A stretch of DNA of 64,000 nt, from positions 12,484,501 through 12,548,500 of the forward strand of contig AP031356.1 in assembly GCA_037833965.1 (NCBI GenBank), read 5' to 3'. The position numbers were made by a program, and so were the translations under genes. Positions 2,243 through 32,640 of this stretch are shown here, piece after piece. The notes under the pieces are model-generated. The model was not told the DNA's origin. It saw only the letters and a list, made by a program, of their open reading frames with translations, and ran no database searches. This stretch comes from Marchantia polymorpha subsp. ruderalis. Taxonomy: Eukaryota > Streptophyta > Marchantiopsida > Marchantiales > Marchantiaceae. Numbering within the stretch: the stretch's first letter is position 1; each line of letters begins with the position of its first letter.

Positions 2243-2604
2243 TGTGGTAACACACTTTTTGTTTTTTTTTCAGAATTTAAACAATTTTAGAAAACTAGTA
2301 CCGAAGCAGTGTTTGTAGTTAGAAAAGGGTATGTTAAATAGAGTGGATTGATGAGATCGTCACGAGGACACGAAGACTCACGTAGTCGGATGTACCAACG
2401 CCAATGTCTTCGGCGCCTTCGGCAAAAGCTCCTTTTCTGAGGTGTCTCTACTCACGCGCCTCCAGCGTATAAGGAAGCTACGCTTCCGGCGCAGACACCT
2501 CAAGAGGAGGTTTTGCTAAAGACGTCAGGAGAAGGGCCCGGACCTCTGAAGGCGTCCGACCATGAGTGCTCCTTCGGCGATGCGCCGCTAGCGCGGAAAG
2601 GGAA

Positions 2605-2735
2605 AACCTTCATAACGATCGGGATACACGGTAGATCCAGTTGGTTAAAGTCGCATTAGAAAGAGCCCGAGACGTTCGTTCTAACGAGCCCAAGAGCGTC
2701 GGAGATGGATCAGGGACGGAGAAGTTATGAGCGTA
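2605..2735 (+). repeat. Shared module of nested element family
   Basis: This roughly 130-bp module opens with CATAACG, contains GAAAGAGC, then CGTTC-TAACGAGCCCAAGA, and ends with GTTATGAGCGT. The same order occurs three times in the other nested element (30677, 31071 and 31318). It is noncoding as far as I can see, and its role is unknown. Confidence 0.7.
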
Positions 2736-3602
2736 GGAAAACTCGTAGCCGGACATGCGCCGTTCGCGCTAGGGTTCACAGCCGGAAAGGATTCCCGTAC
2801 GCCCTCGGCGATGCGCCTTCGGCGGAATCACGCGCTCATAGGAGGAAACCAATTCAGAGTCGGAAGCGCCTTTGGCGGCTGTTCATGGAAGGAAAGCGCC
2901 GGTCGGATGTACGCCTCCGACGTGGCGCTGACGGCCGGATGCGCTGGCATGAGTTGCGCTGGCAGATATGCGCCGGCAGCAATAGACGAGGCATAAAGGA
3001 CAAAATAAGCGGTACGACTGCGCGCCGGCGTAATTCGCTCCGACTAGATGTGCGCCTCCAGCAAGGCGCCGACGGATAAGGAACGCACCAGCGGCGACAC
3101 GCCTCCGGTGAGGGACGGGTTAGGAAAAGACAACATGGCCGACGTATACCCTGCGGCGGACTCGAGTCCGGAAGGTGGCGGCGGCGGGAGAATTCAACAT
3201 TTACGCATGCGAATGCGCGCAGTGCGGAGACGTGAATTCGCGCATGCAAAGGGCGAACCGTTAGGCCGTATAGCCGGCTGCGTACGTTGTAACCAGTAAG
3301 AACGTTGGACGTTCTTGAAATCGGAGAAGAAAAGACTGCGCTCCAGTCTCATTCTCTCATTCTTGATTTTGCAATTTCCAGTTTCCAAGATTACGCGCAA
3401 GAGCGGAGCGATCTGCAGTGAGAGGAGAGAGTGCGGAGACGAGTTGCGCAAGGATCTTGGCAGACCTTGGAGAGAATTGCGAGTAGCGATCTTGAGCGTG
3501 AGCGCAGAGAGAGTGAGCAGTCAGTGCTTGAGCGGCCGACGCGCAGTGGCGATTGTGAGAGAGCGAGCGAAAGGGAGAACGTTTGTGTGTGCAGGCAACG
3601 CA

Positions 3603-6166
3603 ATGTCGAAGGTTCCCCAGCTGCGAGTGTTTCCACTCAGGGTGCCGCAGATCGGTCTACGCGCATTTCAAGATGTGTTACTGAGGCTGAAGCTCGATTT
3701 TCTCCTGTGGGGGTGGAACTGGACATGTCCGGAGATGGTGCGCGAGTATCTGCAGGAGAGACACAAGCCCTCTCGCGGATTCCGTCCACATCCAGAAAGA
3801 TGGGACATTTGCAACTGGGCGCAGGTGTTGGGCAGGTGTGCCGGCGAGGAAGGGGATCTCCTCTTCGAGGCCGATAGCGTGAAGGTGTCCCAGGAGGAAG
3901 AAATCTCCTACAATGAGCTCTTCAAAGTTGCCAGGCATCCCAAGAACGGTTTCCGGACACGGGATTACAAAGATCGATTGCGGAGAAATGTCGCGACTGC
4001 ATTGCTGCAGATATTGCAGCCGACCAAGACCGCTTACATGCATGGTTGGCAGGTAGAATTTGTGGAGCTAGTGTTGTCAGGAGCTCCAGTGCATTGGGCA
4101 CGGCTCCTGTGGAAGGTGACGCGCCAACATGCGCAAGAAGAGAAAGGAGGAACCCTCAATCATCTCTCGCCTTACTTGATCGTGTTTTATCGGGCGATGG
4201 GATGTTTGACAAATGCTGAGAAAACACGGTTTCCGCAGCTGACCCGGAACTATCCAGGTAGATATTCGAGGGAGGCCGAAGTAGACACGGATCCGGACGA
4301 GGAACCTGCCAGTACGCCTCCGGCTCCGGCTCCAGCAAGAGCAGCAGAAGAACGTCGAAGTGAGCGCATTCCGCGAAAGCGGAAGTGGGATGAGAGACCT
4401 GAGGACAGGCAGCCGGAAGTGCCAGCTGCGCCGACTCGTGGTCGGCCCACCCCCGAGCCTCACAGTCGACCAAAACAGAGGGCACGCAAAATGCCAACTG
4501 GTACTGAGGAGACCGGGCGAACTCCGACCCGGCGGAATCTCACACAGGAGGAAATAATCGCGCAGATTCTAGGGAAGACGACAAATACCACTGCACAGAA
4601 GGCACCAAGGCCTTCGGGAGGAGATGGACGGACTGACAGTCGGCCGACTACGAGTCGGACGACTGAAGGCCGACAAGCGGAAGGAAGGCCAACTGAACGG
4701 CGCGTTGAACCGGACCGCAGGCCGGAGGCAGAAGAGAGTTTGGCTGACGAGCCAACAACCCTCAGAGGGTCGTCTTCGGCGGAAGGCACTTCTGGGAAAA
4801 CGCCACCAGCAAGCAGGCCAAGTGGGGTCAAGACGCGCAGGGTGTATCCGACTCCCAGTCGGACAACTGCTGGTCGGCCGACTGCGAGTCGGACAACAGA
4901 GAGTCGGCCGGATTCGCCGATTGCGAGACGGATGGGGCCGACGACCAGTGTGCGGACGCCTTCGGCGGGCGCACCTTCAGCGAAGACACCTTCCGCGCAG
5001 ATTGCGCCGGAAGGGCAGGCAGCAGAAGCGGGCGGTGCAAAAGTGACAAGAGTCACTGCGGCGTCGACCCCTTCGGAGACCAAAGATCGAGCCGGAACAG
5101 GGGCTCAAGCAGTGGGATCTCCCACTGCCCTGGATATTTTAGCAGGCAGCGGAGCAGCAGTCGCAGCGGAAGCTGCTGCGCGCCACAGTTCCAGGGAGTC
5201 GCCAAGGGATTCGGTGACGACTGAAATCCTCGAGACTGAGGATGAGACGAGCTCGGAAGAGCAGGAAGCGGATTCGGTGCAGAAAACGCCAACAGGGGTG
5301 TTGTGCGAACAGATAGTTCCACTCCTGCGATATCTGGATCGCAAGACATCCAAGTACGCGAGTACTTTAAAACCGCAGTCGTATGTGGAGACTATCAGGC
5401 GAAGGACGAGGAGCAAGGTAGCAAGGTGGCAAGGTGGGCCTCTAGGTGCCAAGTATATGTGGATAGGAACACCGACCTCCGACAACACCTAGCGGTCACA
5501 CAGAAGCTATACCAAGCCTTGCAGCAGCAGAGGGAGGATGCGACGACAAAAAGTCAGGCGGATGCCGAGCTAATGCGGGCAAAGATCGAGTCGGAATTGC
5601 AGGAAGAGCGGAGACAAAACCAAGTCCTAGCAGCCGAGCTTGCGTGCCAGACGCGCGCCTTAGAAGAAAGTCAAAGAGCCCGCAAGGAGGATGAGGAGTT
5701 GTTGCGCAACTTGCAATCCGAGTGCTCGGATTTGAGGGCACAACGTGCGGAAGCAGAAATGCAACTGGCAGAGGTGGAGAGCAGCTGCAGGGCGCGAGGA
5801 GAGTTGGCGACACAGGTGACTCGTTGTCTAAAAGGATACGCCCATTGGGAGGTGGCAGCTCAAGAGAGGATCACACTCAGGGAGTTCGAGCTTCGGGCGG
5901 CGGCATTGACGGAGGGTGACAGTCGGAGTCGGCGGCGAGTGGCGAGGAAATTAGAAACCTTCTTGTCGGGTGCGCGCGACACTATGGCGCACTTACAGTC
6001 GGAAGTCACCACAGCGCTCCGACGCCTGGGGTTGCGCAGCCGGTCGGAAGACTGGCAAGGTAGAGACAGCGAGCGGAGTAGTCCGGCGCGCAGGAGGCGC
6101 AGCACCGGATCAGCCGAGTGCAGTAGAATAGTTTGGTTTCGCGCAGATGCTGCGAGTAGTAGATAG
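3603..6166 (+). pseudogene. Mobile-element protein with low-complexity middle and coiled coil, frameshifted
   Basis: The open frame runs 3315-5492, but its first codon is TTG; the first ATG is 3603. A globular N-terminal part (about 230 residues) contains the motif PVHWARLLWKVTRQH and SPYLIVFYRAMGCLT. It resembles the putative plant transposon protein domains found next to plant retroelements, not a Gag with a zinc knuckle. A long Arg/Pro/Thr/Ser-rich middle follows, with repeated SRTTEGRP-type units. The C-terminal part (5480-6166) is a strong coiled coil in another frame. The frame switch lies near 5405-5430, in a slippage-prone repeat of GCAAGGT-like units. I think this was a single protein of about 850 residues in its intact form. 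I recall similar hypothetical proteins from Marchantia. No reverse transcriptase, integrase or protease motif is present. Confidence 0.65.
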
Positions 6167-6866
6167 GATAGCGTAGTGCTAGTTAGGATCTTTGAGGGTA
6201 TAAAGTAGATCAAGGCGTTTTGCCTTGGGACTCTTCCAGTTTCGGAAGTGCAGATCAGGAACTCACTTTCTTGGCGTGTTTGTGCATTTTGGTCCTGGCA
6301 CCACGTAGAGAAGCTGCAGCATAGCGAAGTTACCGTATGTTGTAGTTGAAGGCCTTCGGCTGAATGTTCAGAGCTAGCACCCGGTTAGAGACTTGAGTAG
6401 TGCGGATCTGCACCTGCGGGTGATTTCTGATGCTTAGAGCCGGCTGCGAGTTAGATACTTGAACAGTTCCCCCTTACTCCTTCGAGTGACGTATCCTGAT
6501 TGTACTCCTACGGGAAGTTTCCCCTGAATGCCAATGTGAAGTTTTATTACTTCGTGTAAGCCTTGGTTTGTAATTCAGGTTGTGTGTGTTACTAGATCGT
6601 GTTTCAGTAAGTTCTCAGTCGGGTCTGCACTCCCTGCGTTTGGTGTGATAGTCGAGGGTGACGTCCACGGCGTATGAAGAGGCTTCGTTCCGAAGTGGGA
6701 AGTCCAGTCCGGGTACCCTACGCTAGTTCCTGGCGGAAGGGCAGTAAAAGCCGGAGTGGGAGGCACTACCTGCAGAACCTCTGAGTGAACTTTTGAGACA
6801 CTTTCCTCCTGAAATCCGAAGCGGAGGTCCTGACCGACCTCCGAGTTGTGCTTTTGCCAGTTTCAG

Positions 6867-6886
6867 GTGTGTGTGTGTGTGTGTGT
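6867..6886 (+). repeat. (GT)10 microsatellite
   Basis: Ten GT units lie in the 3' noncoding part of the nested element. Just downstream (about 6908-6966) the octamer CCTCCGAG recurs several times. Confidence 0.9.
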
Positions 6887-7081
6887 TGAGTGACCACGCT
6901 GTACCGTGCATCCTCCGAGCATCCTCCGAGTCGAGATCCTCCTCCGAGTTGAGCCTCCGAGTCGAGCACTGCAGTATTTCTGGGAGTGACAGTCGCCTAG
7001 AATTCAAACTCTACAAAAGTCTGTTAAACGTGACACTTTTACTCTGTGTGTTGCCTCTGTCCCTGTGGGTTCGATCTTTTT

Positions 7082-7113
7082 ACCACCATACTGCAGTTTT
7101 AGCCTTTGGTGGG
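7082..7113 (+). other. 3' terminal stem-loop of nested element
   Basis: CCACC (7083-7087) pairs with GGTGG (7108-7112). It follows a GTTCGA motif at 7069-7074 that starts 53 nt from the element end. The other nested element has GTTCGA at 32324-32329, 55 nt from its end, followed by a perfect 7-bp stem. The matching position suggests a functional 3' end. Confidence 0.55.
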
Positions 7114-7121
7114 TTATTACA

Positions 7122-10100
7122 ATACACTAACTCTCGTACCCCTCATTGGCATTCTTAGGAAAGATCTTATAATAGTAACAGAAACAGCTCTTCATCGTCT
7201 GCTACTCCGAGCTTGGAATCCGGCACTTGCAATGAGTGCGGAGAAATGAGACACTGGTCGTATGAATGCTGTCAGCACCAACTTTAGAAAGAGCTCAAAG
7301 CACTTCAGATCTCTTACAACACTCTGAAGAATTCAAAGCAATAAGAGGCAAACAACATGAATGTTATCTCGATGGTCATGATGACCATCACAAGGTTGCT
7401 TTTGAAGAAGCTGATGCTGTGTTCTTTGATAACAATGCTACTCCTGCCGTAGACAATACAGTAGCCAACGATGCAGCAAATGCACTTTCTGCATTTTTTA
7501 GTCAAGTAGAAGAAAAAAAATCATGGTTTTTTGATAGTGGAGCCTCCTCACACTTAACTGGAAATAGTTCACTTCTTTCTAATTTTGAAAATCAGGCTGA
7601 CCATATCTCAGTGAGAACTGCAGGCAATCAAGTTCTTCCGGTTTGTGAAAAGACCTCACTTACATTGAATCAGAAGAAAGTGTTTGATGTTTTTTACGTG
7701 CCTGGTGTGAAGAAAAATTTGATGTCTGTTGGACGTTTGACTAATCTAGGCCATATAGCACTTTTTAACTCCAAGAATTGTTATGTATTTGATAGAGTAA
7801 ATCCACGGAGCATACTATTGCAGGGAAACGAGATCCACATAACAGTTTATACAAGTTAACTAAGCCTGGAGGTCTCTCACAAGCCATCACAGCACGGTCT
7901 TCTCCAACAAGACTTCTTCGTTCCAATGAAGTTTGGAATATAGAAGAGCCTAAATCCGATCTTCAAACCTATTCAGTTTCTCAGGCAGAACTTTTGCATT
8001 GTAGTATGGGTCATGCAAACTATTAGAAACTATATTTGATGGCGTCTAAGAAACTGGTTGTAGGAATTTCTCAGATTCGTCACATTAAATCTCTATGTGC
8101 TACTTGTCTGAAATCAAAGCAAAGTTGAGATTGTATTTTCAAACACTCTCATACTCAAACAACTTGTGCATTACAGCTGTTGCACTCTAATTTATGTGGG
8201 ACTCTCCCTTCTGAATCCTTAACAAAGAAACGATATATAATGATGTTTACTGACAATTTTAACAGGTAACTTGAAATTGCTGGAGTGATGAGGCACTACA
8301 GCAATTTCAGGAATTCAAATTAATGGTGGAGAATAGTTACAATCAGAAGATCGCCGCACTTTGAACAGACAGAGGGGAAGAATATCTTTCCAAGACTTGT
8401 CATGCCTTCTGCGTCAACTCAGGTATTCAATATGCATTAACTTGTGCATACACTCCACATCAAAATGGCGTAACTGAGCGAAAGAATAGGACTGTACTTG
8501 AGATGACACGAAGTTTACTACTTTATGCTCAATTACCTAAAGCTCTCGAGGAGGAGGCCGCAAGGACATCTATTTATATTTTAAACCGACTGTCAACAAA
8601 GGAAATGCAGATATCAATACCCTTTCAGCGGTTGACAGGTCTTATTCCGAACGTCAAGCACTTTAGAGTCTTTGGATGTGGAGCTTGTGTCTTACTTACA
8701 ACCAGGTTCGACAAACTTTCTGCTAGATTCCTACCACTTACTTTTATAGGCTATGACACTCAGTCAAAAGCCTATCGTGTTTATGATGCTGTTAACAAAA
8801 AAGTTTATATCTGTAGGCATGTAAAGTTTAACGAGTATGGTTTTGGACTTGCAGCCCGATACGATCCTGAACTTGTTGACGATCTAGATATTTTACTTCC
8901 TCAGAATAGAAAACATAAATCAAGAACTTGCTCTGTCAGTACTGAAAATGCTCTACCTACTGACGATACATCTCATTCATTTTCTAAGACTACATCTACT
9001 CAAGTGATACCTCCGACCATTCAGGAATCTAGTTTGTCAGATTTAGAAACAACACCAACTCCTTTGAACTCTTTTGCCTCACCTTATCCACGTCCACCAG
9101 GTGAACCCACCTTTGAGATTGAATGGTTCCAAGAGTCAACTCCTACTGTTGACAGTCCTGACAGAAGTACTGCACCTACTTCTGATACTATTGTAGGAGA
9201 TATGTCAAATAGTCGGCCAATCACTCCCGCTCTAGGCGTTCTCCAGCTTACTGGAAAGACTACGTGAGTTATAACTCACGTGCCAAAATTCCTGGAAATA
9301 CACTCGACTGTCATGAAGTTGAGATTATCGACTACATGGGAGAACATCTCACCTTTGATAAAGCTATCAAGATTCCTGAGTGGCACGCGTTAATGGTTGA
9401 TGAGTTGAACTCCATCCATAAAAACCGTACCTGGACCTTGGTTAAATTACCACAAGGAGCAAAGGCAATAACATGCAAGTGGGTGTTCAGGGTCAAAGAA
9501 AGCCATAATGGTTCTACACCACGTCTTAAGTCTCGTCTTGTAGCGAGAGGTAAGGTGGCCCACCAAAAGTAAGGTAAGCACTACACTGATACCTTCGCTC
9601 CTGTCGTGAAGTGATCTACGATAAGATCTGTGTCCGCCATTGTTGGTGCATGCAGATGGCCACTCTATCATCTAGATGTCAAAACTGCCTTCTTAAATGG
9701 TGTTATTTCAGAAAAAGTCTATGTACAGCAACCACCTTGCTTTATTAGGAAAGGTTTTGAAGATTTTGTATGTAAACTTAATAAAGCGCTTTACGGCTTA
9801 CGACAAGCCCCAAGGGCTTGGTAGAATGTATTGACTTATATTTAAGAGAAGCAGGTTGGACACATTGTCACTCATATCCTAATCTTTATGTTTTAAGGAA
9901 GGATTGTCTCATAGTAATCTTAATGCTCTATGTAGACGATATGTACATAACAGGAAATAGTCAAGTAAAAATCTATGAGATTAAGTCAGATCTAATGCGT
10001 CAATATGAAATGAGTGATTTAGGTGAAATTCAGAAGTCTAGTAGTTGAGTTCTTTCGGTCAGCACAAGGATTATTACTACATCAGAAGTCATATATCACC

Positions 10101-13051: not shown

Positions 13052-13738
13052 TTCCATCACTCGCAAGGCGTCAAACTCAGACGCCTCCCAGTTGGCTGTC
13101 AGATGTTTGGATTCTAGTTCCGTGTCACCGAAAGTCCCCCCCCTAACTAAATCGTCCGTGTGTGTAGTGTGTGAGAAACCGTTGGATTTGTCATGTCCTT
13201 ACGACACTTCATTATTACGATGATCGTGCCACTTGTATATACATCCAACTTATTCGCCTCACTGATCTCCATGAGAACACAGCCGGAAGATCCTCAACTT
13301 CCACATTCCTCGTCCTGCTGCAATGTTCGAGTTACCCGGTTAATAGTCTGAGTTAATCTGCGGTGGTACTGATCGATGCCTCGACACAGTACACTGGGAG
13401 GGTATACTTTTTATCGTCATATCTCCCTATGTCAGTTTGGCTAACGCAAAGAACGCAATAGTGCAGTTAGAATAAGCAGTTGGATATGTAATCCTACAAC
13501 TCCATAGGTAACAGAACACATTGATTGAAAAATAGTCCGGAGAAACAAAGTTATTTATCTGATGGTATCCATCAAGTTTCTATCCGAAGGGATGCTACCT
13601 ATGGAACATTGTCTCTGTAAGTTCTAAAACATGTTATTATATTAAAATTATTATATTATTGAATGTCATTGCTTCCAGAAGTTTAAGTAATGGATGCCCG
13701 GTTTCGAGAGTAAGAGTCAAACCGAGAAGGCGTGAAAC
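13052..13738. other. 3' flank of dirigent copy 1 (type a), no gene
   Basis: This flank matches 25140-25826 downstream of copy 3 and differs from the flank of copies 2, 4 and 5 beyond the first few bases after the stop. The sequence around 13729-13742 is the uninterrupted site corresponding to the young copia insertion at 25829. Confidence 0.8.
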
Positions 13739-14139
13739 AACATGCTTTTCTTAACTACATACTTATCGAGAGAGGTAATATCGAAGAAATTGGTGCCAAT
13801 CAATAGCGAACTGAGATCTATTGAGTGCAGCTGCTCACTTATTTCAGGAGTTAACTGCCTTGACACTGTAAAAGTCTCGATAAGTTGGTAGCGCACACGG
13901 CATCGTCGGCAACTGCATTCATGGAAGGAGGATTTGCACTCGGCATGGAATAGAAGGGGCTGGACCGAACAGCTCTCCCCATAGATCCAACTGCTTAAGC
14001 AGATGTTGGTTTTCATCGCATTAAGAACGAGGTAGCCTAATCGAGATGACTAAAATTTAATTTTTACTCAATGGCTCGTTACTTTGTATACTTTTTTAAT
14101 CAGAGGTTATCCATATACCGTGTACAATACAGGGCATAT

Positions 14140-14168
14140 GGGATGGAGTATAGGCTATACTCCATCCC
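14140..14168. repeat. Near-perfect palindrome, 14-bp arms
   Basis: The arm GGGATGGAGTATAG (14140-14153) is complementary to 14155-14168 with a one-base centre. The unit 2 copy at 33304-33332 has one arm mismatch. Confidence 0.9.
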
Positions 14169-17100
14169 CAAATAAATCGTACCTACGTACTTCTCAGGTC
14201 TTGTGTATGCCTCGGTTTCCTCCTTCAGATAGTTACACACTATTAAACACCAGAGATGAATATAGAGATGATCTCATAAATCTTCACTCTCACCTTCCTG
14301 GTCACGGTACGAAAATAAATACTCTTGAAAGATATAAAGTTTATGCAGTATCTAAAAGTCACCCCTTCGAGATCGATAAACACACACGACAGTCACAACT
14401 TGTACAGGCTAAGTCTAGGGGCAAGAATAGAAATTTCACTAAAGAACAAGTGTATACAAGGACTTCATAGCCGAAGCTCTACTCCTTCTTGCTCACTCTC
14501 AAAGTGCAAGTCTGAGAGTGAATGGCTAATTCTCTTTTTTATACAAGAAAAGATAAGATGTACATCTTAACCAACCACAATTAATTTTCCTAACTATGGT
14601 TATCACAAATTGAAATTGATTCAATTTAAAGTTAACATAGCAGTAACATTGTTGCAAAATGAGAATGTCTCATCTTCCTGTTGAAATGGAAACATGTTTG
14701 ATAGTCTCCAATAAAAGAGATTCCAAGCGGATATGGTAAACTGATTTGAGCCCACATCCTGAGTCACATGCAAGAAGATGACTTTAGAGTCTAATGTCAG
14801 GGTTTAAGAAAGGGAGTTGTTGTTACACGGTTTCAACTTATTTTGCTATCACCTGAACAGGAGTCTGCTAGTAAAATATCTCCCTACTGACCTCACTTGT
14901 TCCTTCCAGTTAATAAATAAAGTTTTATTACTATACAAACTTTATAAAGACACTCTTCAACATGACCAAGAAACAATTTGAGAAGGATTACGGTAAGGAA
15001 TGAGTCTTTTATATCATTAGTTTCCCATTTGATATTGTCATCGTCAAACCATGGGTGTAAGTCTACTGAATGTTCGATTTTTCAAATCAATAGTCAGTAA
15101 AGCCTCATAATAAGATGCTTACACAACTTGCATCTTCCCGAAGGAATAAATGTTCTCGTTTGGTCGTCTTGAGCAACATGACAGGAGTCCACGAAAGAAA
15201 GTTTTCACATGCCCGCCCTTGAAGGCAATCTCCCAATTCGTGAAGAAAAAGGAAGCAGATAGAAACCAACCCGTTAGATCACTTTGATGTCTTCATTGCA
15301 TACGGAATGAGCGAGGTGGGACGTTCATGAGGCTGAGCCGAGCCCAATGTCACGGCTAGTCCGGCCAGTGATATTCGCCACCATCTGACGGGAAGAAAAT
15401 TACTTGATGGGACCCAACAGATTTTATTTTACCATATATGACTTTATTGACGGCATTGCGTCACACTGTCAGGTATGTTACAATAAGAGTTGGGGTTATT
15501 CGGGTAGGAACATGAAGCCACGGTGATACCTGTAGCTTTCTCATACATAACTATGAACGAGTCGCCAAAATATTCTAGCCCAACAGTGGCAGACACTCCC
15601 TACATTATAGAGCATATTAGCGGGTTATAAGAACTTTCATTGGAATATTGCTAACTTTGGGTTACATATGGCCCATTGAGTAAAATAAAACCTGTTTGAT
15701 ACCAAAAAGTGTCAAAAAGTTTGATTCTTCGAGAGTTAAGCAACTTGTATGCAATAATGTTCATAGATAAAGATGTACAGTAATCTCTCGATTAAGTATG
15801 CAAATTGATTATAGGAGTATTATGCGTAGTTAACTTGGAAGTGAGTAATTAGGTGAATCACTTTTTAATAGAATTGGAGTACCTGTCAAAATTGCCACAC
15901 AAATGAGAGAAGAACCTGCATCTCAATTAACTTAACTAACCCTCACATATATAATCCTGTATTCGGTTCGGATGAACTAATGATCATCAAGGTTATTCTC
16001 TTTTTCGACGAGTCACAAGGAAAAACCTACCAAAAATAACTAGTAAGTTTTTGAGAGATTCATATATAATCTACAAAGATGCGTCTGAGTTCAAAATCGT
16101 AAGAACAACGCAGATTTTACAGACATATCTTCAAAATTATTAAAATACAATTTTTTGAGGTGAATCACGTCTTAAGATTTTGATTCGATTATAATGTCGA
16201 AGAACCAAAACTAAACTACAAAATGAATCTTACCTATGTAATGTAAGTTGAACAACACAACTACTTACTTTTAGTGGAAGCATATGTGTTTCCAATAAAA
16301 GTTCTCTAGCTCGCAACAAAAATGTTAGTGGAACAGCTGTAAAAAATGTTCGAGACAAGCATACACTAACCTTAAAAAGATATGATTTAATATCTCATGA
16401 ACCTAGAGAGACTATTTTTCAATACTTCTTGATGTTATATTCATTTTGAAGAAATGCTTTATATTTAGATTAATAGCATTCGTAGGGCCATTTGTCTCAT
16501 TCCGCCATCGCCAAAACAAAAAGTTTTGAACTAAATTTATAAATTTTGACTAAATCAATCACAACGTGATGAGGATTGCACAAGGTGTTGTTTTGACATA
16601 CGCACTTAAGTCAATAAATCCGAAAGTGGATTACTGAAAACTTTAGACGGATTTTAAGTTTTTATTGCCCTATATGGTCTGAAAACGTATGCAATATGGT
16701 GCATAACGGCTTATTTTTTTTACTACTACAAACTCTTAATACCAAATGAGAAAACATCAATAAAAAAATAAATTTCCAAACAACAATATTCAAAACTTGC
16801 TTAATTTTACAATCTCTGATATTTGCAGGAGAAATTTATGCGTACTTACTACAGATGCGTATAGGTCCTGTTCAAGTATGGTCGTGGCAGAGGCTCTACA
16901 GGTTTGAAAAGATATATATATCTAAAACCTCCAGATGCTCGCTGTAGGGTTCCAAACAAACTCAGGGTGCCAAACGTGGCAGCGGGAGCACAACCGGACC
17001 TGCTTCTCTGTTCATCAGAAAGTATAAATGTATTGTCGATGCTCCGAACCTGCTAGACATCCTTCTTACTTGTGATATCAATTCGCGTGTGGACCATGTG

Positions 17101-17557: not shown

Positions 17558-17593
17558 AAAGTTGACAATAATATCAAAATTATTGTCAACTTT
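17558..17593. repeat. Inverted repeat, 15-bp arms
   Basis: AAAGTTGACAATAAT (17558-17572) pairs with 17579-17593 across a 6-nt loop. The unit 2 copy (about 36716-36751) has one arm mismatch. Confidence 0.9.
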
Positions 17594-19410: not shown

Positions 19411-20388
19411 ATTTGGTTAGATACTACTTCCCAACTGAGTGAGTTCCTCAATATCAATTGTCGAGTATTTCTCCGTAATTTCTCTCTTTCAATCATTGGT
19501 ACAAGAATCTAAAGTATCAAACCTGAAGGCGATAACGTTTGAAGATTTTTTCGAATCCATTCTACAATCCATTCTACAATTCTTTGAATCCACTCATTTG
19601 TGCACAATAATTATGAAACTCGTGGAAAAGAATCGTCTACCACTTTTATACTAATGAATATCCGAGATTCCCAGTTCCAAATCATCCGAACCAACGAATT
19701 TCGATGAGTCCAAACCAGAATCGCATGATAATAAGCAAAATCATCACAAAAACATATCCACATTGTACAACTGGAAAACAAGGGTTGGAGCCATGGTACA
19801 TCTTAGCACAATACCCGAAAAGTAAAAGATTCAAAAAAACGGAGTCCAGTAGTCTCGTTACTTCTGTTTCTCAATGGATTGCATGAAACAACTTGCTTGT
19901 TAAATCTCCTCAAGAAAGAGAAGGTTTCCTGCAGTACCACGATCTTATAGATATAAGTACTAAGTCTGGCTCTCTTTTGCTATCAGGGACAACAGAACAT
20001 TACCGAGCTGAGCACCATTCGCTCGCTCCAGTTCTACTTCATTCTCCTCACTAAACGGACAGATCACCGCAGAGAAGGATCTGCCAGTACGATTTGAAGG
20101 AATCTATCGGCGAGCATGCACGTGGGACATCCATGAGTCCGAAGGCAGCACTTTCACTGGGATCGCATGCATGGGCACACAGCAAACTGGAACGAGTCCT
20201 GAGCAAAAGGGTGCAGGAGAAGAATGAATATGATGTCTGAGAACCACCGGGTGCATAATTGTGAATTTAACTTCTTCATGGAAAATTACACGGAAACGAG
20301 CGCAGCCGCCAGCTCCCGGGCTCCACGAATGCGCAAAGTAGGCATAAGCTCGACTGCAGTCGCTTCGAACGCCTTGCGAGTGATGGAA
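19411..20388. repeat. 3' flank of dirigent copy 2 (type b), inverted-arm part
   Basis: It reads downstream of the minus-strand dirigent gene. It repeats directly at 38569-39546 and as an inverted copy at 44297-45269. Its outer limit in the inverted comparison is at about 19411. No coding gene is recognised. Confidence 0.8.
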
Positions 20389-20940
20389 TCAGTAAGAGTG
20401 ATGCGGAAGCATGAGATTTGCTTCGTACTTGAGAACGGGAAAAGCTGAGTTGAGAGACACTGCGCTGACTGTCAAGTAGCCTGACACTCCTCTGAAGGAG
20501 CCCGTGCCAGAGCTGATGGCCTCCTCCCAAGACGGCGCGGTGAAGTCGATCCTGGCAGAGCCTGACATGGTTCCGGAGTAGCCGTGAATCGTGATGTCCA
20601 GCGCGAAAGAAATGAACTTCTTGCTTGGATCGTTGAGTGAGACTAAAACGCCGGATTGGTGCCCGATCTGAGCTGAAGCATTGGAAGCTGTCTTTCTGAT
20701 AACGCTGTCGAAGACGATGATATCGCCGAGTTGAAATGGGCCCGTGAGAGTGGCGTTGGCGCCGGCCACTGCTACAGCCGTAACGTTGGGCGGCACGAAG
20801 TCGTCGTGCAGGTAGTACGTGAAATTCACGGCCTTCATCTTCATCTTCATGGCGCTCGCAGGGGTCCAAAGTCCTGAGGAAAGGATACACAGGGCACAGA
20901 GAAACACGCCCAGAGTCCACGTCCCATTAGTTCTTTCCAT
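20389..20940 (-). CDS. Dirigent-like protein, copy 2
   Basis: This intact 183-residue copy lies on the minus strand. It differs from copy 1 only at residue 2 (Glu for Asp) and is identical in protein to copy 4. The signal peptide, the YYLHDD and GTGSFRG motifs and all four sequons are kept. It shares the core promoter and upstream ORF, but its 3' flank is of type b. With copy 3 it forms an inverted gene pair whose 5' ends face each other across about 3.6 kb. Confidence 0.92.
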   Translation of the reverse strand: MERTNGTWTLGVFLCALCILSSGLWTPASAMKMKMKAVNFTYYLHDDFVPPNVTAVAVAGANATLTGPFQLGDIIVFDSVIRKTASNASAQIGHQSGVLVSLNDPSKKFISFALDITIHGYSGTMSGSARIDFTAPSWEEAISSGTGSFRGVSGYLTVSAVSLNSAFPVLKYEANLMLPHHSY

Positions 20941-21097
20941 GCTGTGGCTGTGAATTCGGGGTTCGAGAAGTCGCTAGTTTCAGAAAAAGAGGGTGAGTGA
21001 TCAGCTACTCAAGATATCGCTTCTAGGAGTCTGTCAATAGATGGCCTTTGTCCAGGCGAATGCGGATGATCCCGAGCGCTAAAAAGTGGTTCTAGCG

Positions 21098-21124
21098 TCA
21101 AGGAGATCGAAAAGAGTGATCCAT
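21098..21124 (-). other. Short upstream ORF in dirigent copy 2 leader
   Basis: The ATG at 21124-21122 lies 184 nt upstream of the main start, as in copy 1, with the same eight codons. Confidence 0.45.
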
Positions 21125-21149
21125 GCTCACAACTGCAACACATGCTTGC

Positions 21150-21170
21150 TTATATAAGGTCGTACACGTG
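21150..21170 (-). promoter_or_regulatory. Dirigent copy 2 core promoter: TATA box and G-box
   Basis: TATATAA (complement of 21150-21156) and CACGTG (21165-21170) have the same spacing to the start codon as in copy 1. Confidence 0.6.
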
Positions 21171-21484
21171 AGGAGTTGCGGATCTTTTTATCTTTTCAAT
21201 TTCAAGATCTGGATCCCGCAGCCACGTCCATGGCCCACAGCGTCATTGGAGGCGCTCGATGCCCGGTCCCCGGTCCGAAGGAAGACCGGATCTCTTAGAA
21301 AGACCTCCAGAACTTCGGCCAAATTGCGCTGCCTGAAGTGTGGGAGATCGTGAAGGAATCCCATCATAGCCTCAGCCTTTGCTCTTTGCTCTTCGTTAGC
21401 GTCGCATCTGATCCTGCAATATGGCGTGAGTGAGAAGGGTCAAAGCAGCCTGTGAAGCCATTTCGTCGAGTTTGAGATTATTAC

Positions 21485-22163
21485 TAGGGCTCCGATCGGG
21501 TGGGGTTCGGGTCGGGTTTGACCTTCAACCCGAACACGACACGAAAAACCGGGTCGATTTGGGTAGAACCCGAATCGATCCCGCGGGGATCCATGATCGT
21601 GAAGGTACGGCGAGGGAGAATTGGGGAAGGGAGCTTCGAGTATTTTTTTGACGAGGAGGCGATGCGAGAATTTTTCGAGAAGTCAGGACGAATAGCATAG
21701 GTAGCGCAGCGCGACCAGCTAGACGCAGAAGCGAGCGAGCAAGAGGCGGGACGAGGAGCAGAGTTTCGCGAAACGGAGTGGAAGCCAATGCAGACGAAGA
21801 AGGACTAGCCGAGCTCTTCTCGGTCATTGCTTTACTCATTTCACCATAATCATTTCGGATATCTCCCAGTTGTTGTCATCAGCAACCTTCAACGATTTAC
21901 AGAACGCTACGCTACCGACACTTGAAAAAGATTCGCGAGGATGCATTCAGGGTCTCGTCGCTTCGGTGAATCACCCGATCGCAGCCTAAGCTCCTTGCCT
22001 TGTTTTTACAAAAAGTCTATCCCGGAGGTCTCGGATAAGTAAACATCGTATCAGCTCGCACAGCTTAATTTTCGGGTTTCGGGTCGTGTACAGCCCTCTA
22101 CCCGAACCCTATCCGACCCGAACTCGGGTTTTCGGGTTTTACCCTAACCCGACCGGAGCCATA
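21485..22163. mobile_element. hAT-like non-autonomous element, intact copy in unit 1
   Basis: Ends TAGGGCTCCG and CGGAGCCATA are inverted repeats with one mismatch, and about 16 bp of imperfect terminal match extends inward. Flanks ATTATTAC (21477-21484) and ATAATTAC (22164-22171) are a 7-of-8 target duplication, the length hAT elements make. Both ends are rich in CGGGTT/AACCCG repeats. No transposase frame is present in the 679 bp. Confidence 0.75.
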
Positions 22164-22967
22164 ATAATTACCAGACACAAACAGGAAGACCCGCCTAAGT
22201 CTGTGCTAGCAGCGGTATTGAGCCATGGTGTAACTACGGACAATTCCGTTTCCTTGGTTCTGCCATCCGCAGCCATCGTCTACCCGCGGAGCTTCAGTTT
22301 ATTTGGCAGGATAAGCTTTTCTTCCCCTGAATTCATAGTGCATGGAGCATAATTTTCGTCCTCCGGGGACGAACAACGGCGAGTCGTAGGCAGCTGCTTA
22401 CTGTGCTTGCTCTTCTCTGCCACTTCCAAGTCTTATGAGGGTGGTGACTACGGGGTATCTGGGACATTGTGTGCCCTACCCTAAAGGAGAATAATGGTCT
22501 GCGTTATAGTCTTCCTTTCCTTTCCAGATCCAAAACATCTACCGCACAGTGGTTGAATTTCTCCATTTTCATGTATTCCGGCCCACCTAGGACAAGAATG
22601 TGAAGGGAGAGATGGCAAGAGCGTACAACAAAGTAAATTCATATTTTATGAAATACTCGGAACCAACAACATTGTTTCAGTTTCCTTGAGGTGAGTTTCG
22701 GTGCCATAACCTTTTTGGCATGTAAAATGCAAAAGGTTTAGCATGCCAATGACCTGACAAGTAACATATTCGTATAAAGTCGCGAAGATGATATACTCAA
22801 GGATCGGAACATGGACTGCTCGCTCTCTAGGAGACGACGCATCACACTCAAAGAGTTCGATCACCCACTAGTACAATCTGGGGTTGTCGGATCGGGGGAT
22901 CTATCTGATTGAGAATATAATCCATCATCTTCATGCGAGCCCAACTGTTCAGCCTCTTGCGAGTTTC
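22164..22967. repeat. Inverted partner of window positions 1-793
   Basis: It runs as the reverse complement of the left block and continues to where the window's first base pairs (about 22967). A short open frame of 72 residues on the minus strand (22646-22864) is kept in all three copies but lacks any recognised domain. Confidence 0.8.
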
Positions 22968-24189
22968 TGTGACTTCGATGAGAGACGTGTTACTTGGTGT
23001 AGACTAGAAAGAAAAAATATCACCTCACGGAAAGAGCAAGAAGAATCCTTTGCAGCGACAGTCTCATTCCTTCCAGACGAGAGAGTAAGCAACGAAAAAA
23101 CAACTTGTGACTTGCTTGATTCATACCTTCGATGGGGTTTCTTAAGGCAAAGCAAATGTCCTCAGGACTGATAAACTATATAAATAAACAAATAATTGCA
23201 TGAAAACGTAAAAGCAGGAGAGGTCAGTCGTGGAAGTATTCTTTCTTGACCGATTTGGAGAATCTTATTAGGGTGTTACAAGGGATTTGGTTTAATGGGG
23301 TCAGTCCTCTTCCGAAACTCGTGCAGTTACAACGAAGCCTTGGACTGCATGGTTGGTGCAGAGAACATTTAATTGTGGAAAGAAACGATCGGCTTGTAGT
23401 TTTGTTTACAAGTACTGACGTTTGAAGGAGAACGAGATTTGGTACTGATGATACAAAACAACCTTGAGCTTGTGAGCATGTTCCACGACATGAGCAGATT
23501 TGCCGCAAAGGAACGCCAATTCTAGGTCAGCTGGTTATCTGATGGTAGCAGATGAACTCATGGTTTCAAGAGCAAATATATATGTCAATGGTGTTTCCCT
23601 CACGTGCTTCAGCTCTCACTGGATCTGGCGATAGTCTACAACAACAAAAAAAACATGTTCTTCGACAAACGGCGAACTTAACTTCTACAGCGGAGGAAGC
23701 GATTTCTGCGTCTGGAGACTAAAAGAAGATCAGCGTCTCAAGGTGAAAGTTGAGATCTAGATGCCCCCTGTAGAGAATGGTCATGAAAAGAAACTGATCC
23801 CCTTCCTAAGAGTAGCCATGAAGAATATGAAATGGGTTGCTTATGTACTGAAAGAACATTGACACACGTTGCATTATAAGTTGTAGCAACGATATTATCT
23901 CACCTTCATGATAATTCAAGTCTCTTGAAATCAAAGAGAAAAGAAACCTATATGTTTTCCAAATGAATCACCCTGAATCACAAAACTGCTCAATCCATGA
24001 TTTTCTGTTGATGATGAACTTACTCATCTCAATCTTCATATGATTGGGAGAAATTTGGAGAGGAATTATTTTTTACTTGAATTTTGGCACAGCTCGTCCT
24101 TCTATACTCCATGATCAGAAAATACCATCTTAATGAATTTCTCTGCACATTTTTTATCATGCAACAAGCACCATACCAAGAAGCTTCTA
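22968..24189. other. Second spacer of unit 1, no gene seen
   Basis: It repeats at 42126-43346. Short antisense open frames near 22884-23508 are preserved only because the copies are nearly identical. The last 100 bases contain a segment (24134-24175) that recurs at 43292-43333 and, imperfectly, at 45271-45312. Confidence 0.7.
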
Positions 24190-24357
24190 CCGAAGTTCTG
24201 GAGGTCTTTCTAAGAGATCCGGTCTCTTTGGCCTATTCTGCGACTTCCTTCGGACCGGGGACCGGCCATCGAGCGCCTCCAATGACGCTGTGGGCCATGG
24301 ACGTGGCTGCGGGATCCAGATCCTGAAATTGAAAAGATAAAAAGATCCGCAACTCCT

Positions 24358-24378
24358 CACGTGTACGACCTTATATAA
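24358..24378 (+). promoter_or_regulatory. Dirigent copy 3 core promoter: G-box and TATA box
   Basis: CACGTG (24358-24363) and TATATAA (24372-24378) stand at the same distances from the start as in copy 1. Confidence 0.6.
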
Positions 24379-24403
24379 GCAAGCATGTGTTGCAGTTGTG
24401 AGC

Positions 24404-24430
24404 ATGGATCACTCTTTTCGATCTCCTTGA
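24404..24430 (+). other. Short upstream ORF in dirigent copy 3 leader
   Basis: The eight-codon frame starts 184 nt upstream of the main ATG, as in the other copies. Confidence 0.45.
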
Positions 24431-24587
24431 CGCTAGAACCACTTTTGAGCGCTCGGGATCATCCGCATTCGCCTGGACAAAGGCCATCTATTGACAGACT
24501 CCTAGAAGCGATATCTTGAGTAGCTGATCACTCACCCTCTTTTTCTGAAACTAGCGACTTCTCGAACTCCGAATTCACAGCCACAGC

Positions 24588-25139
24588 ATGGAAAGAACTA
24601 ATGGGACGTTGACTCTGGGCGTGTTTCTCTGTGCCCTGTGTATCCTTTCCTCAGGACTGTGGACCCCTGCGAGCGCCATGAAGATGAAGATGAAGGCCGT
24701 GAATTTCACGTACTACCTGCACGACGACTTCGTGCCGCCCAACGTTACGGCTGTAGCAGTGGCCGGCGCCAACGCCACTCTCACGGGCCCATTTCAACTC
24801 GGCGATATCATCGTCTTCGACAGCGTTATCAGAAAGACAGCTTCCAATGCTTCAGCTCAGATCGGGCACCACTCCGGCGTTTTAGTCTCACTCAACGATC
24901 CAAGCAAGAAGTTCATTTCTTTCGCGCTGGACATCACGATTCACGGCTACTCCGGAACCATGTCAGGCTCTGCCAGGATCGACTTCACCGCGCCGTCTTG
25001 GGAGGAGGCCGTCAGCTCTGGCACGGGCTCCTTCAGAGGAGTGTCAGGCTACTTGACAGTCAGCGCAGTGTCTCTCAACTCAGCTTTTCCCGTTCTCAAG
25101 TACGAAGCAAATCTCATGCTTCCGCATCACTCTTACTGA
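24588..25139 (+). CDS. Dirigent-like protein, copy 3 (most divergent)
   Basis: The gene is intact, with 183 residues. Relative to copy 2 it has three changes: Trp8 to Leu in the signal peptide, Gln95 to His, and Ile142 to Val just before the GTGSFRG motif. It has the type a 3' flank shared with copy 1. A young copia lies about 690 bp downstream and does not disturb the gene. Family role and motifs are as for copy 1. Whether His95 affects the barrel or trimer contacts cannot be judged from sequence alone. Confidence 0.92.
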   Translation: MERTNGTLTLGVFLCALCILSSGLWTPASAMKMKMKAVNFTYYLHDDFVPPNVTAVAVAGANATLTGPFQLGDIIVFDSVIRKTASNASAQIGHHSGVLVSLNDPSKKFISFALDITIHGYSGTMSGSARIDFTAPSWEEAVSSGTGSFRGVSGYLTVSAVSLNSAFPVLKYEANLMLPHHSY

Positions 25140-25828
25140 TTCCATCACTCGCAAGGCGTCAAACTCAGACGCCTCCCAGTTGGCTGTCAGATGTTTGGAT
25201 TCTACTTCCGTGTCACCGAAAGTCCCCCCGTAACTAAATCGTCCGTGTGTGTAGTGTGTGAGAAACCGTTGGATTTATCATGTCCTTACGACACTTCATT
25301 ATTACGATGATCGTGCCACTTGTATACACATCCAACTTATTCGCCTCACTGATCTCCATGAGAACACAGCCGGAAGATCCTCAACTTCCACATTCCTCGT
25401 CCTGCTGCAATGTTCGAGTTACCCGGTTAATAGGCTGAGTTAATCTGCGGTGGTACTGATCGATGCCTCGACACAGTACACTCGGAGGGTATACTTTTTA
25501 TCGTCATCTCTCCCTATGTCAGTTTGGCTAACGCAAAGAACGCAATAGTGCAGTTAGAATAAGCAGTTGGATATGTAATCCTACAACTCCATATGTAACA
25601 GAACACATTGATTGAAAAATAGTCCGGAGAAACAAAGTTATTTATCTGATGGGATCCATCAAGTTTCTAGCCGAAGGGATGCTACCTATGGAACATTGTC
25701 TCTGTAAGTTCTAAAACATGTTATTATATTAAAATTATTATATTATTGAATGTCATTGCTTCCAGAAGTTTAAGTAATGGATGCCCGGTTTCGAGAGTAA
25801 GAGTCAAACCGAGAAGGCGTAAAACAAC
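25140..25828. other. 3' flank of dirigent copy 3 (type a), no gene
   Basis: It matches 13052-13738 with a few differences. Its last five bases ACAAC (25824-25828) are the left target duplication of the young copia. Confidence 0.8.
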
Positions 25829-30400: not shown

Positions 30401-30446
30401 GCTCAAAATCCTATCTACCATGGACGAACCAAACACATTGAGGTGC

Positions 30447-30470
30447 TGTGAGCACAAAATTGTGCTCACA
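30447..30470. repeat. 5'-terminal palindrome of nested element
   Basis: TGTGAGCACAA is followed by AA and then its exact complement (30460-30470). The element thus begins with an 11-bp-arm hairpin that has a 2-nt centre. Confidence 0.9.
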
Positions 30471-30676
30471 TGTCTTTTTAACCTTGTGAGAGTTAAAGTT
30501 TTAGATTTAAGCTCTTGCAAAATTATGCTCGGAGTTTTCTGGAAGTTTTGGTAAGATTAGGAGTTGGTGTAATAGCTAGTAGGCAAAGGTCCGGAACGGG
30601 GCTTTCAGGGCAGGGTCTCCGGCGAAGAGCCTTCGGTGAAGTTCCTTAGGGGAAAGGCCTTCGGCGAAACAGTGAA

Positions 30677-31453
30677 ACCCTCATAACGTTTTCAATGTGT
30701 GACGCCTTGACTCAGTTAGTGTTTCCTTGGAAAGAGCTCGCAACGCTCGTTCCAACGAGACCAAGAACTCTTCAAACGGATGAGAATCACTGAGTTGTGA
30801 GTGTCGGAAGTTACTGATGGGAAGGGTTGAGGCAAGCCCGGCTGCGAACGCCTTAGGCTCCAGACGTCTTCAGCTCCGGACGTCTCCAGCTGCGAACGTC
30901 TTCAGCTCCGGACGTCTCCGGCTGCGAACATCTCCGGCTTCGGAGGACTTTGCGACAACTGCGAGCAGGCCTTCGGCGAACTCGGAATCGGCGAACTCGG
31001 GGTCGGCAAACTCCGAGCCGGTGAACATCGTGCAAGGGCCATCGGCGAAACAGTAAACTCGGCATATCTTTTTCATTTGTTAACGGTTTGACTTGATTAG
31101 GGTCTCGCTGGAAAGAACTTGCGACGCTCGTTCCAACGAGACCAAGAACTCTTCAAACGGATAAGGCGTCACTGAGTTATGAGCGTCGAAAGCAGCGGAT
31201 AGGGTAGGACAACATCCAACCGGAAGACATCGAACCGGCGAACATCGTGCCGGCGCCTTCGGCGATAACAGGTAACAGGCCTTCGGCGGTGTGCCTTCGG
31301 CGAAGGGTAAAACGGGCATAACTTTCTCAATTCGTAACGGTTTGACCCAGTTAGGGTCTCGTTGGAAAGAGCTCAACCTGCTCGTTCCAACGAGCCCACG
31401 AACTTGTGAAACGGAGCTAGGATCTGTGAGTTATGGGTGTCGGGAGTGACTGT
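30677..31453 (+). repeat. Three imperfect copies of the shared module
   Basis: Copies start near 30677, 31071 and 31318. Each has a CATAACG-like opening, TTGGAAAGAGCT or a variant, TCGTTCCAACGAG, a variant of CAAGAACT, and GAGTTATGAGTGTCGG. Between them lie GC-rich stretches with many CCTTCGGCG repeats. Confidence 0.75.
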
Positions 31454-32332
31454 TATGGATAAGCAAAGGTGTGGTCGTGCGTCTTCGGCGGGTGGATGCC
31501 TTCGGCGGTGCGCAGAAGAGGATTCCCTCCGGCGGAGATCGGGTGGTCAGGAATGTAGAATGTGCAGGTGTGGCAGCGGCGGCGGCGTGAAGTCAAGTGG
31601 GGGAGGCAAGACGACGGTGCATGTAGTCGCGCAAGGGGAGTAGGCAGCTACCCATCATTGCGAGTGTTGCATTTTTCAGGCGGGCTGTGTGTGTCTCGGC
31701 CTTGAACTTCGAAGTGGGGAGTTCGGCCTGGGAACGGAGAGCTCGTGGTGTGCGTGTGTGGAGACGGAAGTGGTGAGAATTAGGAGGGGAGTGTGGAGAG
31801 TTCGAAGTAGGAGGAAGCAAACTCTCGTGGGTGGAGAGTCGTATCAGAGAGTGAAATTTGAGTGGGATCTGAGATTGAAGTGTAACATCTGTGAGTGGGA
31901 TCTGAGATCAGAGTGGAAGATCTGAGAATGGGAGCTGAGAGTGAAGTGAAATCCGAGACTGAGATCTGACAGTCGGAATCTGAATTTGACACTGAAAAGG
32001 CAAAGTTGAATCTGAGAGAGGAATCTGGTGGGGTCTGAAGGTGGAAGCTGAGAAATCGACACTGAGGTCTGAGTAGGAATTGGGAGTGGGACTGGGATCT
32101 AGGATAGACCACAACGGCTGTGGTGTTGAAAAAGTCACCCAGAGTTGAGTTAGATCTTTATGTAACAAAGAGTTTGTCTGCTGCCCTTGTGGAGATAGCA
32201 GACAGCAAGTTATCATTTTCTGTTCTGGATAAATTGTCTGTGAACGAGCAAGTGTTTATGATCTCGTTGTCTTGGATACACTTTGAGCACATGGCTTGCG
32301 ATCAGAGAAGTTAGATTATGGGAGTTCGAACC

Positions 32333-32363
32333 CCCACCCGGACTACAAACGCTGAAGGGTGGG
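32333..32363 (+). other. 3' terminal stem-loop of second nested element
   Basis: CCCACCC (32333-32339) pairs perfectly with GGGTGGG (32357-32363). It follows GTTCGA at 32324-32329. Spacing to the element end matches the other nested element within two bases. Confidence 0.6.
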
Positions 32364-32640
32364 AAGGTTTGGCTCACAGGTGCGTCACCATTTCATCAGA
32401 GAAAAAATTGCATTAGGTGAAATTAACCTAGCCTATGTTTCAACAAACGAACAGCTTGCAGACATATTGACCAAACCTTTAGGCAAAATAGCTTTCGAAA
32501 GGCTCAGAGAACAGTTAGGTTTGACTAGATTAGAAACTTCCAAAAATCAGTAAAAATCTTAGTATACATCAATCGGTTCATCGTAAGTAATAGAAATAGC
32601 AATTGATTATCACCCAAAGCGCCCAAAACAAGCATGTCTG

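What the first reader, a model, noticed from the sequence alone, without database searches (positions are those of the whole stretch)
2243..32378. Two nested elements with TG...CA ends and 5-bp target duplications but no LTRs
2243-7121 (TSD ATACA) and 30447-32378 (TSD GGTGC) each sit inside a copia gene, and removing each restores the copia frame, so the ends are exact. They share ends, an internal module and a 3' stem-loop, but have different middles: one holds a long protein frame, the other is noncoding. I see no terminal direct repeats. Either these are solo LTRs of a family with LTRs up to 4.9 kb that carry a gene, or they are an LTR-less class mobilised by an LTR-element integrase. Both options would be unusual.
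Basis: partly seen in the sequence, partly recalled or inferred. Interest (0 to 1): 0.75.

Follow-up and report, generated by a model that had tools for sequence, protein, structure and literature searches.

The report
Two solo LTRs, one carrying a gene
Both insertions are leftover end-repeats of ordinary Gypsy-type jumping genes rather than a new kind of element, but one of the end-repeats is unusual because it carries a large protein gene that natural selection appears to have kept working.

Summary
The two insertions are real and their edges exact (5-bp duplications ATACA and GGTGC). The LTR-less reading is refuted: both are solo LTRs of two related Ty3/Gypsy families in this 241-Mb genome. 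For 30447-32378 one complete element was read: 1.9-kb LTRs 99.2% alike, 5-bp duplication, gag/RT/RNaseH/IN. For 2243-7121 the genome holds 505 exact LTR/internal junctions, 331 exact polypurine/LTR junctions and 2,326 exact LTR 3' ends. Of ten two-LTR elements checked at their outer edges, 8 of 10 have perfect 5-bp duplications.

It is open in 4 of 7 copies examined. Between subfamilies it shows purifying selection (omega 0.25-0.29; 0.04-0.09 in the first 257 codons; wrong-frame controls 0.89-1.23). A related family has the same layout. Its N-terminal domain matches no Pfam family; function unknown. Nearest printed parallel I saw: MMTV sag.

The parts
2243..7121 (+). Solo LTR (4,879 bp) of an abundant Ty3/Gypsy family, inserted in a copia gag region
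   Evidence: TSD ATACA; same unit found as 5' and 3' LTR of two-LTR elements
2238..2242 (.). Target-site duplication ATACA, left copy
7122..7126 (.). Target-site duplication ATACA, right copy
3603..6163 (+). LTR-borne gene (851 codons in unbroken copies), broken in this copy by one frame change near 5,425; conserved N-terminal domain 3603-4373, low-complexity middle, C-terminal coiled-coil-like part
   Evidence: tblastn of an unbroken copy's protein: residues 1-609 at 3603-5429, 604-851 at 5420-6163; unbroken in 4 of 7 copies examined; omega tests; no Pfam family for the N-terminal domain
6199..6204 (+). TATA box (TATAAA), about 30 bp after the gene's stop; conserved at the same relative place in a related family. 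It would place the gene in U3 and the start of R just downstream
   Evidence: transcription start is inferred, not measured
7083..7112 (+). 3' hairpin of the LTR (CCACCA/TGGTGG), one C-G to U-A compensatory change in the related family
30447..32378 (+). Solo LTR (1,932 bp, no protein gene found) of a second Ty3/Gypsy family, inserted in the RNase H end of a copia pol
   Evidence: TSD GGTGC; complete element with two such LTRs; 32 of 40 scored genome hits in same-strand neighbours 8.10-8.21 kb apart
30442..30446 (.). Target-site duplication GGTGC, left copy
32379..32383 (.). Target-site duplication GGTGC, right copy
30653..31452 (+). About 160-bp module present three times in the second LTR (30653-30816, 31034-31192, 31293-31452), 75-79% alike
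32333..32363 (+). 3' hairpin of the second LTR (CCCACCC/GGGTGGG)

Best explanation
Both insertions are solo LTRs. A complete Gypsy element integrated into a copia element and made a 5-bp duplication; homologous recombination between its two LTRs then removed one LTR and the internal region, leaving a single LTR with the duplication intact. SHOWN: both units serve as the paired LTRs of Gypsy elements elsewhere in the same genome. INFERRED: the deletion by recombination, which is the standard route. The first family differs from an ordinary one in that its 4.88-kb LTR contains an 851-codon gene. SHOWN: the gene is open in several copies and the open copies of different subfamilies differ in the pattern of purifying selection. 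INFERRED: it lies in U3, because it ends just upstream of the conserved TATA box, so it sits at the 3' end of the genomic RNA (as sag does in MMTV) and would be expressed from its own U3 promoter or a subgenomic RNA as an accessory protein that helps the element. Every solo LTR of this family also leaves behind a copy of the gene, open or broken.
For: First family: IN C-terminus, stop, GAGGAGGGGGGCA, then LTR start in 6 of 6 loci read, one of them the discovery locus. Where the step from LTR end into internal sequence was read, at four junctions, it continues TARGGAGCCGACAACTTCTTTT + TGGCGCCGCTGCCGGGGA, the latter the exact complement of a tRNA 3' end found as 4 T-arm-plus-acceptor matches in the genome. 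505 exact LTR/internal junctions (first 12 internal bases), 0 in the reversed-pattern control; 331 exact PPT/LTR junctions, 0 in the control. Ten elements with 5,789-5,800 bp between junctions, 8 of 10 with perfect 5-bp duplications outside both LTRs. Pol in the order RT-RNaseH-H2C2-rve. Second family: LTRs at 189-2092 and 8306-10224 of L009/L010, 99.2% identical, duplication ACCCT, gag, RT, RNaseH, IN. Gene; gene-TATA layout repeated in a related family.
Against: No internal region of the first family was read from end to end; completeness rests on junctions, spacing and outer duplications. 2 of 10 elements had no LTR end at the predicted place. The gag match is weak (Retrotrans_gag E=0.013, Ty3_capsid E=0.0094, in 1 of 3 pieces). 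The U3 placement rests on a TATA box, not on a mapped start site. No promoter for the gene was identified, and no expression data were available. The omega tests used only the 4 unbroken copies; C4 against C9 gave no sign of constraint (omega 1.08, limits 0.61-3.33, 30 differences; its wrong-frame controls were 0.69 and 0.39).
Confidence: 0.93

Rival explanations
1. An LTR-less class of elements with TG...CA ends, mobilised in trans by an LTR-element integrase.
For: Of the 6 copies first read in 30-kb blocks, 5 have their own exact 5-bp duplication with no internal region attached.
Against: 505 primer-site-side and 331 polypurine-side junctions in the same genome, and 8 of 10 two-LTR elements with 5-bp duplications at their outer edges.
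Confidence: 0.02
2. The LTR gene is a passenger: a captured or decayed host or element sequence that is merely copied along with the LTR.
For: Several copies are broken, including the window's (3 of 7), and both copies of the related family read are incomplete frames. No known domain. Omega is higher in the last ~590 codons (0.42-0.46), and 1.08 between C4 and C9.
Against: Between subfamilies (four comparisons) omega is 0.25-0.29 overall and 0.04-0.09 in the first 257 codons, with wrong-frame controls of 0.89-1.23 and codon-position skew p from 3e-7 to 3e-4. The protein is still 48-49% identical over 733-738 aligned residues in a related family.
Confidence: 0.1
3. A LARD-like LTR family whose LTRs merely grew by nested insertion, the gene being part of a nested older element.
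For: This family and its relatives nest heavily in each other.
Against: The gene sits at a similar place between the LTR ends in the 7 full copies read and next to the TATA box in the related family too. I noticed no element ends around the gene in what I read.
Confidence: 0.05

Closest known systems
Plant Ty3/Gypsy LTR retrotransposons and their solo LTRs, e.g. rice Retrosat2 (PMC3485330, passages read)
   Same: LTRs over 3 kb, more than 1,000 complete or partial copies, many solo LTRs (429 solo to 162 complete in rice), an extra gene of unknown function besides gag-pol
   Different: In Retrosat2 the extra gene ORF0 lies upstream of the gag-pol frame; here the gene lies inside the LTR itself, so it is present twice in every complete element and once in every solo LTR
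Mouse mammary tumour virus, sag gene in U3 (PMC9412291, passages read)
   Same: A protein gene lying in the U3 part of the LTR, at the 3' end of the genomic RNA
   Different: Animal retrovirus; superantigen. Here a Gypsy element of a probable liverwort, with an 851-codon protein without known domains; no sequence comparison with Sag was made
LARD, TRIM and TR-GAG elements of plants (recalled, not looked up)
   Same: Long or gene-poor LTR-bounded units
   Different: Those are non-autonomous elements with two LTRs and a reduced interior; here the single units are LTRs of elements with pol
Ginger / Tdd-4 DNA transposons with an LTR-type integrase (recalled, not looked up)
   Same: TG...CA ends, short duplications, single unit
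   Different: They carry terminal inverted repeats and an integrase inside the unit; here the units are LTRs

Membership tests
Ty3/Gypsy LTR retrotransposon (family of 2243-7121) | Two LTRs in direct orientation with TG...CA ends | tested here: met
   Junction positions, spacing and outer edges; in one tandem array the read ends of two LTRs are identical over 107 and 65 bp
Ty3/Gypsy LTR retrotransposon (family of 2243-7121) | Primer-binding site after the 5' LTR | tested here: met
   18 nt complementary to a tRNA 3' end in the genome, read at four junctions; the anticodon was not read
Ty3/Gypsy LTR retrotransposon (family of 2243-7121) | Polypurine tract before the 3' LTR | tested here: met
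   GAGGAGGGGGGCA in 6 of 6 loci read, discovery locus included; 331 exact junctions
Ty3/Gypsy LTR retrotransposon (family of 2243-7121) | Pol in the order RT-RNaseH-integrase | tested here: met
   L044, 860-residue frame, from a 5'-truncated copy that runs into the PPT and LTR of L043
Ty3/Gypsy LTR retrotransposon (family of 2243-7121) | gag in the internal region | tested here: inconclusive
   One of three pieces gives Ty3_capsid E=0.0094 and Retrotrans_gag E=0.013, below cut-off
Ty3/Gypsy LTR retrotransposon (family of 30447-32378) | Two LTRs, 5-bp duplication, gag, RT, RNaseH, integrase | tested here: met
   L009/L010
Solo LTR | Single LTR with intact target duplication and no internal sequence, in a genome with complete relatives | tested here: met
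LTR-less integrase-mobilised class | Unit never found as a flanking repeat of an internal region | tested here: not met
U3-encoded accessory gene (MMTV-sag-like arrangement) | Gene lies in U3, upstream of the transcription start | tested here: inconclusive
   TATA box follows the stop codon in two families; no transcript data
U3-encoded accessory gene (MMTV-sag-like arrangement) | Protein is made and serves the element | not testable with these tools
   Only selection could be measured

The most novel reading that the evidence does not exclude
A plant Gypsy lineage has placed a large, selected accessory protein gene wholly inside U3 of its LTR, the first such arrangement in plants to my knowledge. 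Each complete element then carries the gene twice, and the solo LTRs (perhaps about 1,300 by a rough count) have scattered free-standing copies through the genome, at least one of them still open (C4), as a reservoir of potential new genes.
Probability: 0.5. Interest if true: 0.65.

Novelty: new variant of a known kind. Interest (0 to 1): 0.48.

Why it matters
LTRs are normally regulatory DNA. A selected protein gene inside the LTR changes the accounting of an LTR element: two gene copies per element, gene retention after solo-LTR formation, and coupling of the gene to the promoter region that every copy needs. It would be a plant parallel to the MMTV sag arrangement, and it gives a clear test case for whether solo LTRs can express a functional retroelement protein. 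It also closes the 'LTR-less class' question for this window.

Tried and rejected
PBS guesses: an initiator-Met primer site within 8 bases of the LTR gave 0 matches. TGGYGC within 8 bases gave 30 matches; five of these places were read (L029-L033) and none showed a primer site, several being nested-insertion junctions. The true primer site lies 22 nt after the LTR, outside that pattern. I first took coding sequence downstream of L031/L033 for internal region; comparison showed older related copies used as targets.

tRNA pattern with one position too many gave 0; the corrected pattern gave 4.

L041-L044 was expected to be a complete element; it is a 5'-truncated one followed by an LTR with its own primer site, so it was not used as a complete element.

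Structure of the N-terminal domain of the LTR gene from the window's single sequence failed (mean pLDDT 38.6); no fold search was run on it. phmmer against PDB gave only two designed repeat proteins at E 0.012 and 0.097, taken as chance.

A junction in the C9 copy (LTR + 18-nt primer site joined to LTR position 3966) was considered as a marker of the start of R. The TATA box at 3957 lies only about 10 bp upstream, so it cannot be read as an exact transcription start and was not relied on.

Paper searches. One search listed 25 of 65 papers, all 16. The LTR-gene papers listed there were mainly on MMTV and foamy viruses; I recognised no plant case from titles and abstract starts. Two non-viral listings with the words 'LTR ORF' (Talaromyces, PMC12037069; Heliconius, PMC4016481) were not opened. 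Open-access library only; Repbase and subscription papers were not searched.
Full report
THE OBSERVATION. 2243-7121 (4,879 bp) is flanked by ATACA on both sides, 30447-32378 (1,932 bp) by GGTGC; both start TGTG and end CA; neither has a second copy in the window. Joining the flanks puts the copia coding sequence back in one frame, perfectly for the second insertion and with one in-frame stop ten codons after the junction for the first. Pfam supports copia around the second (gag, integrase core, RVT_2); around the first, of the two downstream frames tested, only the SH3-like domain passes its cut-off. The two insertions share little DNA: three matches of 24-52 bp. They do share a hairpin close to the 3' end (CCACCA/TGGTGG and CCCACCC/GGGTGGG), which in a relative of the first LTR is kept with one compensatory C-G to U-A change.

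THE SECOND INSERTION IS AN ORDINARY SOLO LTR. Its first 200 bases hit the genome as same-strand neighbours 8.10-8.21 kb apart for 32 of the 40 hits scored (656 candidates), including a run of four. One such pair was read: LTRs at 189-2092 and 8306-10224 of L009/L010, 99.2% identical, outer duplication ACCCT, internal region of 6.2 kb with gag, RT, RNase H, H2C2 and integrase core in Gypsy order. The window copy is 85-91% identical to those LTRs in its two long aligned parts.

THE FIRST INSERTION IS ALSO A SOLO LTR. Six copies chosen for their 5'-end match were read with 30 kb of context. Five of the six have their own exact 5-bp duplication and no internal region attached. One of these blocks (C6) holds a second same-strand unit about 6 kb away, but its flank is not the internal start found later and the first unit has its own duplication, so I do not count them as a pair. 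The sixth copy (C9) has no duplication and turned out to run into internal sequence. Two guessed primer sites failed or misled. The break came from a copy whose upstream flank encodes a Gypsy integrase C-terminus ending about 40 bases before the LTR, with a purine tract GAGGAGGGGGGCA at the edge. Searching with that flank gave 40 scored hits at about 100% identity, the query itself included (1,260 candidates), and 6 of 6 loci read, the discovery locus among them, run directly into the first base of the unit.

On the other side, at four junctions read, the unit's last base is followed by TA(A/G)GGAGCCGACAACTTCTTTT and then TGGCGCCGCTGCCGGGGA. These 18 bases are the exact complement of a tRNA 3' end that occurs with its T-arm at four places in the genome (from memory this is the tRNA-Asp type of site used by many plant Gypsy elements; the anticodon was not read). 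Whole-genome counts: 505 exact unit/internal junctions, using the first 12 internal bases, 331 exact purine-tract/unit junctions, 2,326 exact unit 3' ends, with 0 in the reversed-pattern controls of each.

From the printed parts of the lists (the first 100 places; the 40 hits) I paired junctions by eye at the expected 5.8-kb spacing on one strand. Of the 15 hits on C1-C3, 14 had a partner. I took 10 of the 14 before seeing their flanks (internal 5,789-5,800 bp); one of the four left out was a tandem array. Eight of the 10 have a perfect 5-bp duplication outside the two LTRs; in the other two no LTR end was found at the predicted place. The pol gene beside one such LTR has RT, RNase H, H2C2 and rve in Gypsy order and is 48% identical over 853 aligned positions to the pol of the second family. 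A gag-like frame starts just after the primer site, but its Pfam match is weak. If each exact 5' junction has a partner 3' LTR, some 2,326 - 2 x 505, about 1,300, of the exact 3' ends are solo LTRs. This is rough, because the patterns differ in strictness.

THE UNUSUAL PART: A GENE INSIDE THE LTR. The long frame in the window is one gene, broken once near 5,425; residues 1-609 and 604-851 of an unbroken copy's protein align to 3603-5429 and 5420-6163. In 4 of 7 copies examined it is a single frame of 846-851 codons. The omega tests used those four. Between two subfamilies (L033 and L043 against C4 and C9; four comparisons) omega is 0.25-0.29 for the whole gene (bootstrap limits 0.17-0.40) and 0.04-0.09 for the first 257 codons. 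The same sequences read in the two wrong frames give 0.89-1.23, and differences concentrate at third positions (p 3e-7 to 3e-4). L033 against L043 gives 0.30 (wrong frames 1.60 and 0.74). C4 against C9 gives 1.08 with limits 0.61-3.33 on 30 differences (wrong frames 0.69 and 0.39), which I read as change since insertion (inferred).

A related family with starts TGTGGTACCCCA and the same last bases has the same gene, 48-49% identical over 733-738 aligned residues. Both copies of it read have incomplete frames: 837 + 221 codons in L034, and a frame lacking the first part in L032. A unit with these ends in the C6 block, taken as the same family, is 4.9 kb long with a 5-bp duplication AGTCA; the L034 copy is 5.4 kb. 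That family was not itself tested for LTR pairing. In both families the gene stops about 30-40 bp before a conserved TATA box, which places it in U3 if that TATA box drives the genomic RNA (inferred). The protein has an N-terminal part predicted helical only at very low confidence (pLDDT 38.6), a low-complexity middle, and a C-terminal part that weakly resembles coiled coils (no family above cut-off). The second family's LTR gave no match to the gene better than E 0.12.

MECHANISM. Established knowledge: solo LTRs arise by recombination between the two LTRs of one insertion, keeping the target duplication. That accounts for both insertions. For the gene, I commit to an accessory protein encoded in U3 and expressed from the 3' end of the element (own promoter or subgenomic RNA), by analogy with MMTV sag, whose U3 location and U3 promoter are described in PMC9412291 (passages). 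The analogy is of position only. What the protein does is not shown.

KNOWN OR NEW. Long-LTR Gypsy elements with an extra gene are known: Retrosat2 of rice has LTRs over 3.2 kb and an ORF0 upstream of the gag-pol frame (PMC3485330, passages). I found no description of a plant LTR with a selected protein gene inside it, but the library is open-access only and I judged most papers by their listing. I rate this a new variant of a known kind.

HOST. Not named. Nine contigs, eight of 24-33 Mb and one of 5.59 Mb, and plant dirigent genes in the window fit a Marchantia-like liverwort with a small sex chromosome (microchromosomes described in PMC13182070, passage). PMC9985172 (passages) reports 222 full-length LTR elements for M. 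polymorpha ruderalis; whether this family is among them is unknown. This identification is an inference.

Noticed in passing
window 13736-25152 and 32900-44309: An 11.4-kb segment with dirigent-like genes is directly duplicated at 99.4% identity, the two copies separated by a stretch holding the copia element that carries the second solo LTR; five dirigent-like frames of 183 codons in all.
   Followed up: partly
G000 C1, about 2.26-3.05 Mb: LTR ends recur on the small contig at constant offsets of about 393,465 and 366,080 bases (e.g. 2260229, 2653693, 3019774), pointing to very large tandem segmental copies or an assembly artefact on what may be a sex chromosome (positions).
   Followed up: no
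L020/L021 (C9 block, minus strand, 15131 and below): An LTR followed by exactly the 18-nt primer site and then by LTR position 3966 to the end, interrupted by an insertion, and again a primer site: looks like a reverse-transcription strand-transfer by-product.
   Followed up: partly
C6:27640420, C8:1874424, C8:1953431, C8:2002322, C9:3273130: Five LTR copies share the same downstream bases GTAGACATGGTGC; in the one read (C8:1874424, L033) this is a related LTR gene used as target: repeated insertion at one site or later amplification.
   Followed up: no
L031, L032, L034: LTR ends of the first and the related family are followed by the same sequence, which in L034 is the reverse complement of the first ~180 bp of the related family's LTR; in L034 the first and last 503 bases are identical, 8.3 kb apart.
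   Followed up: partly
C6:9767991 and 9778654; C8:5920311-5944870: Tandem arrays suggested by regular spacing in both families (periods 10.66 kb and 8.12 kb); for the C6 pair the junctions on both LTRs were read.
   Followed up: partly
window 49624-51534 (-): A 636-codon leucine-rich-repeat protein frame (Pfam LRR_6 E 2.4e-41).
   Followed up: no
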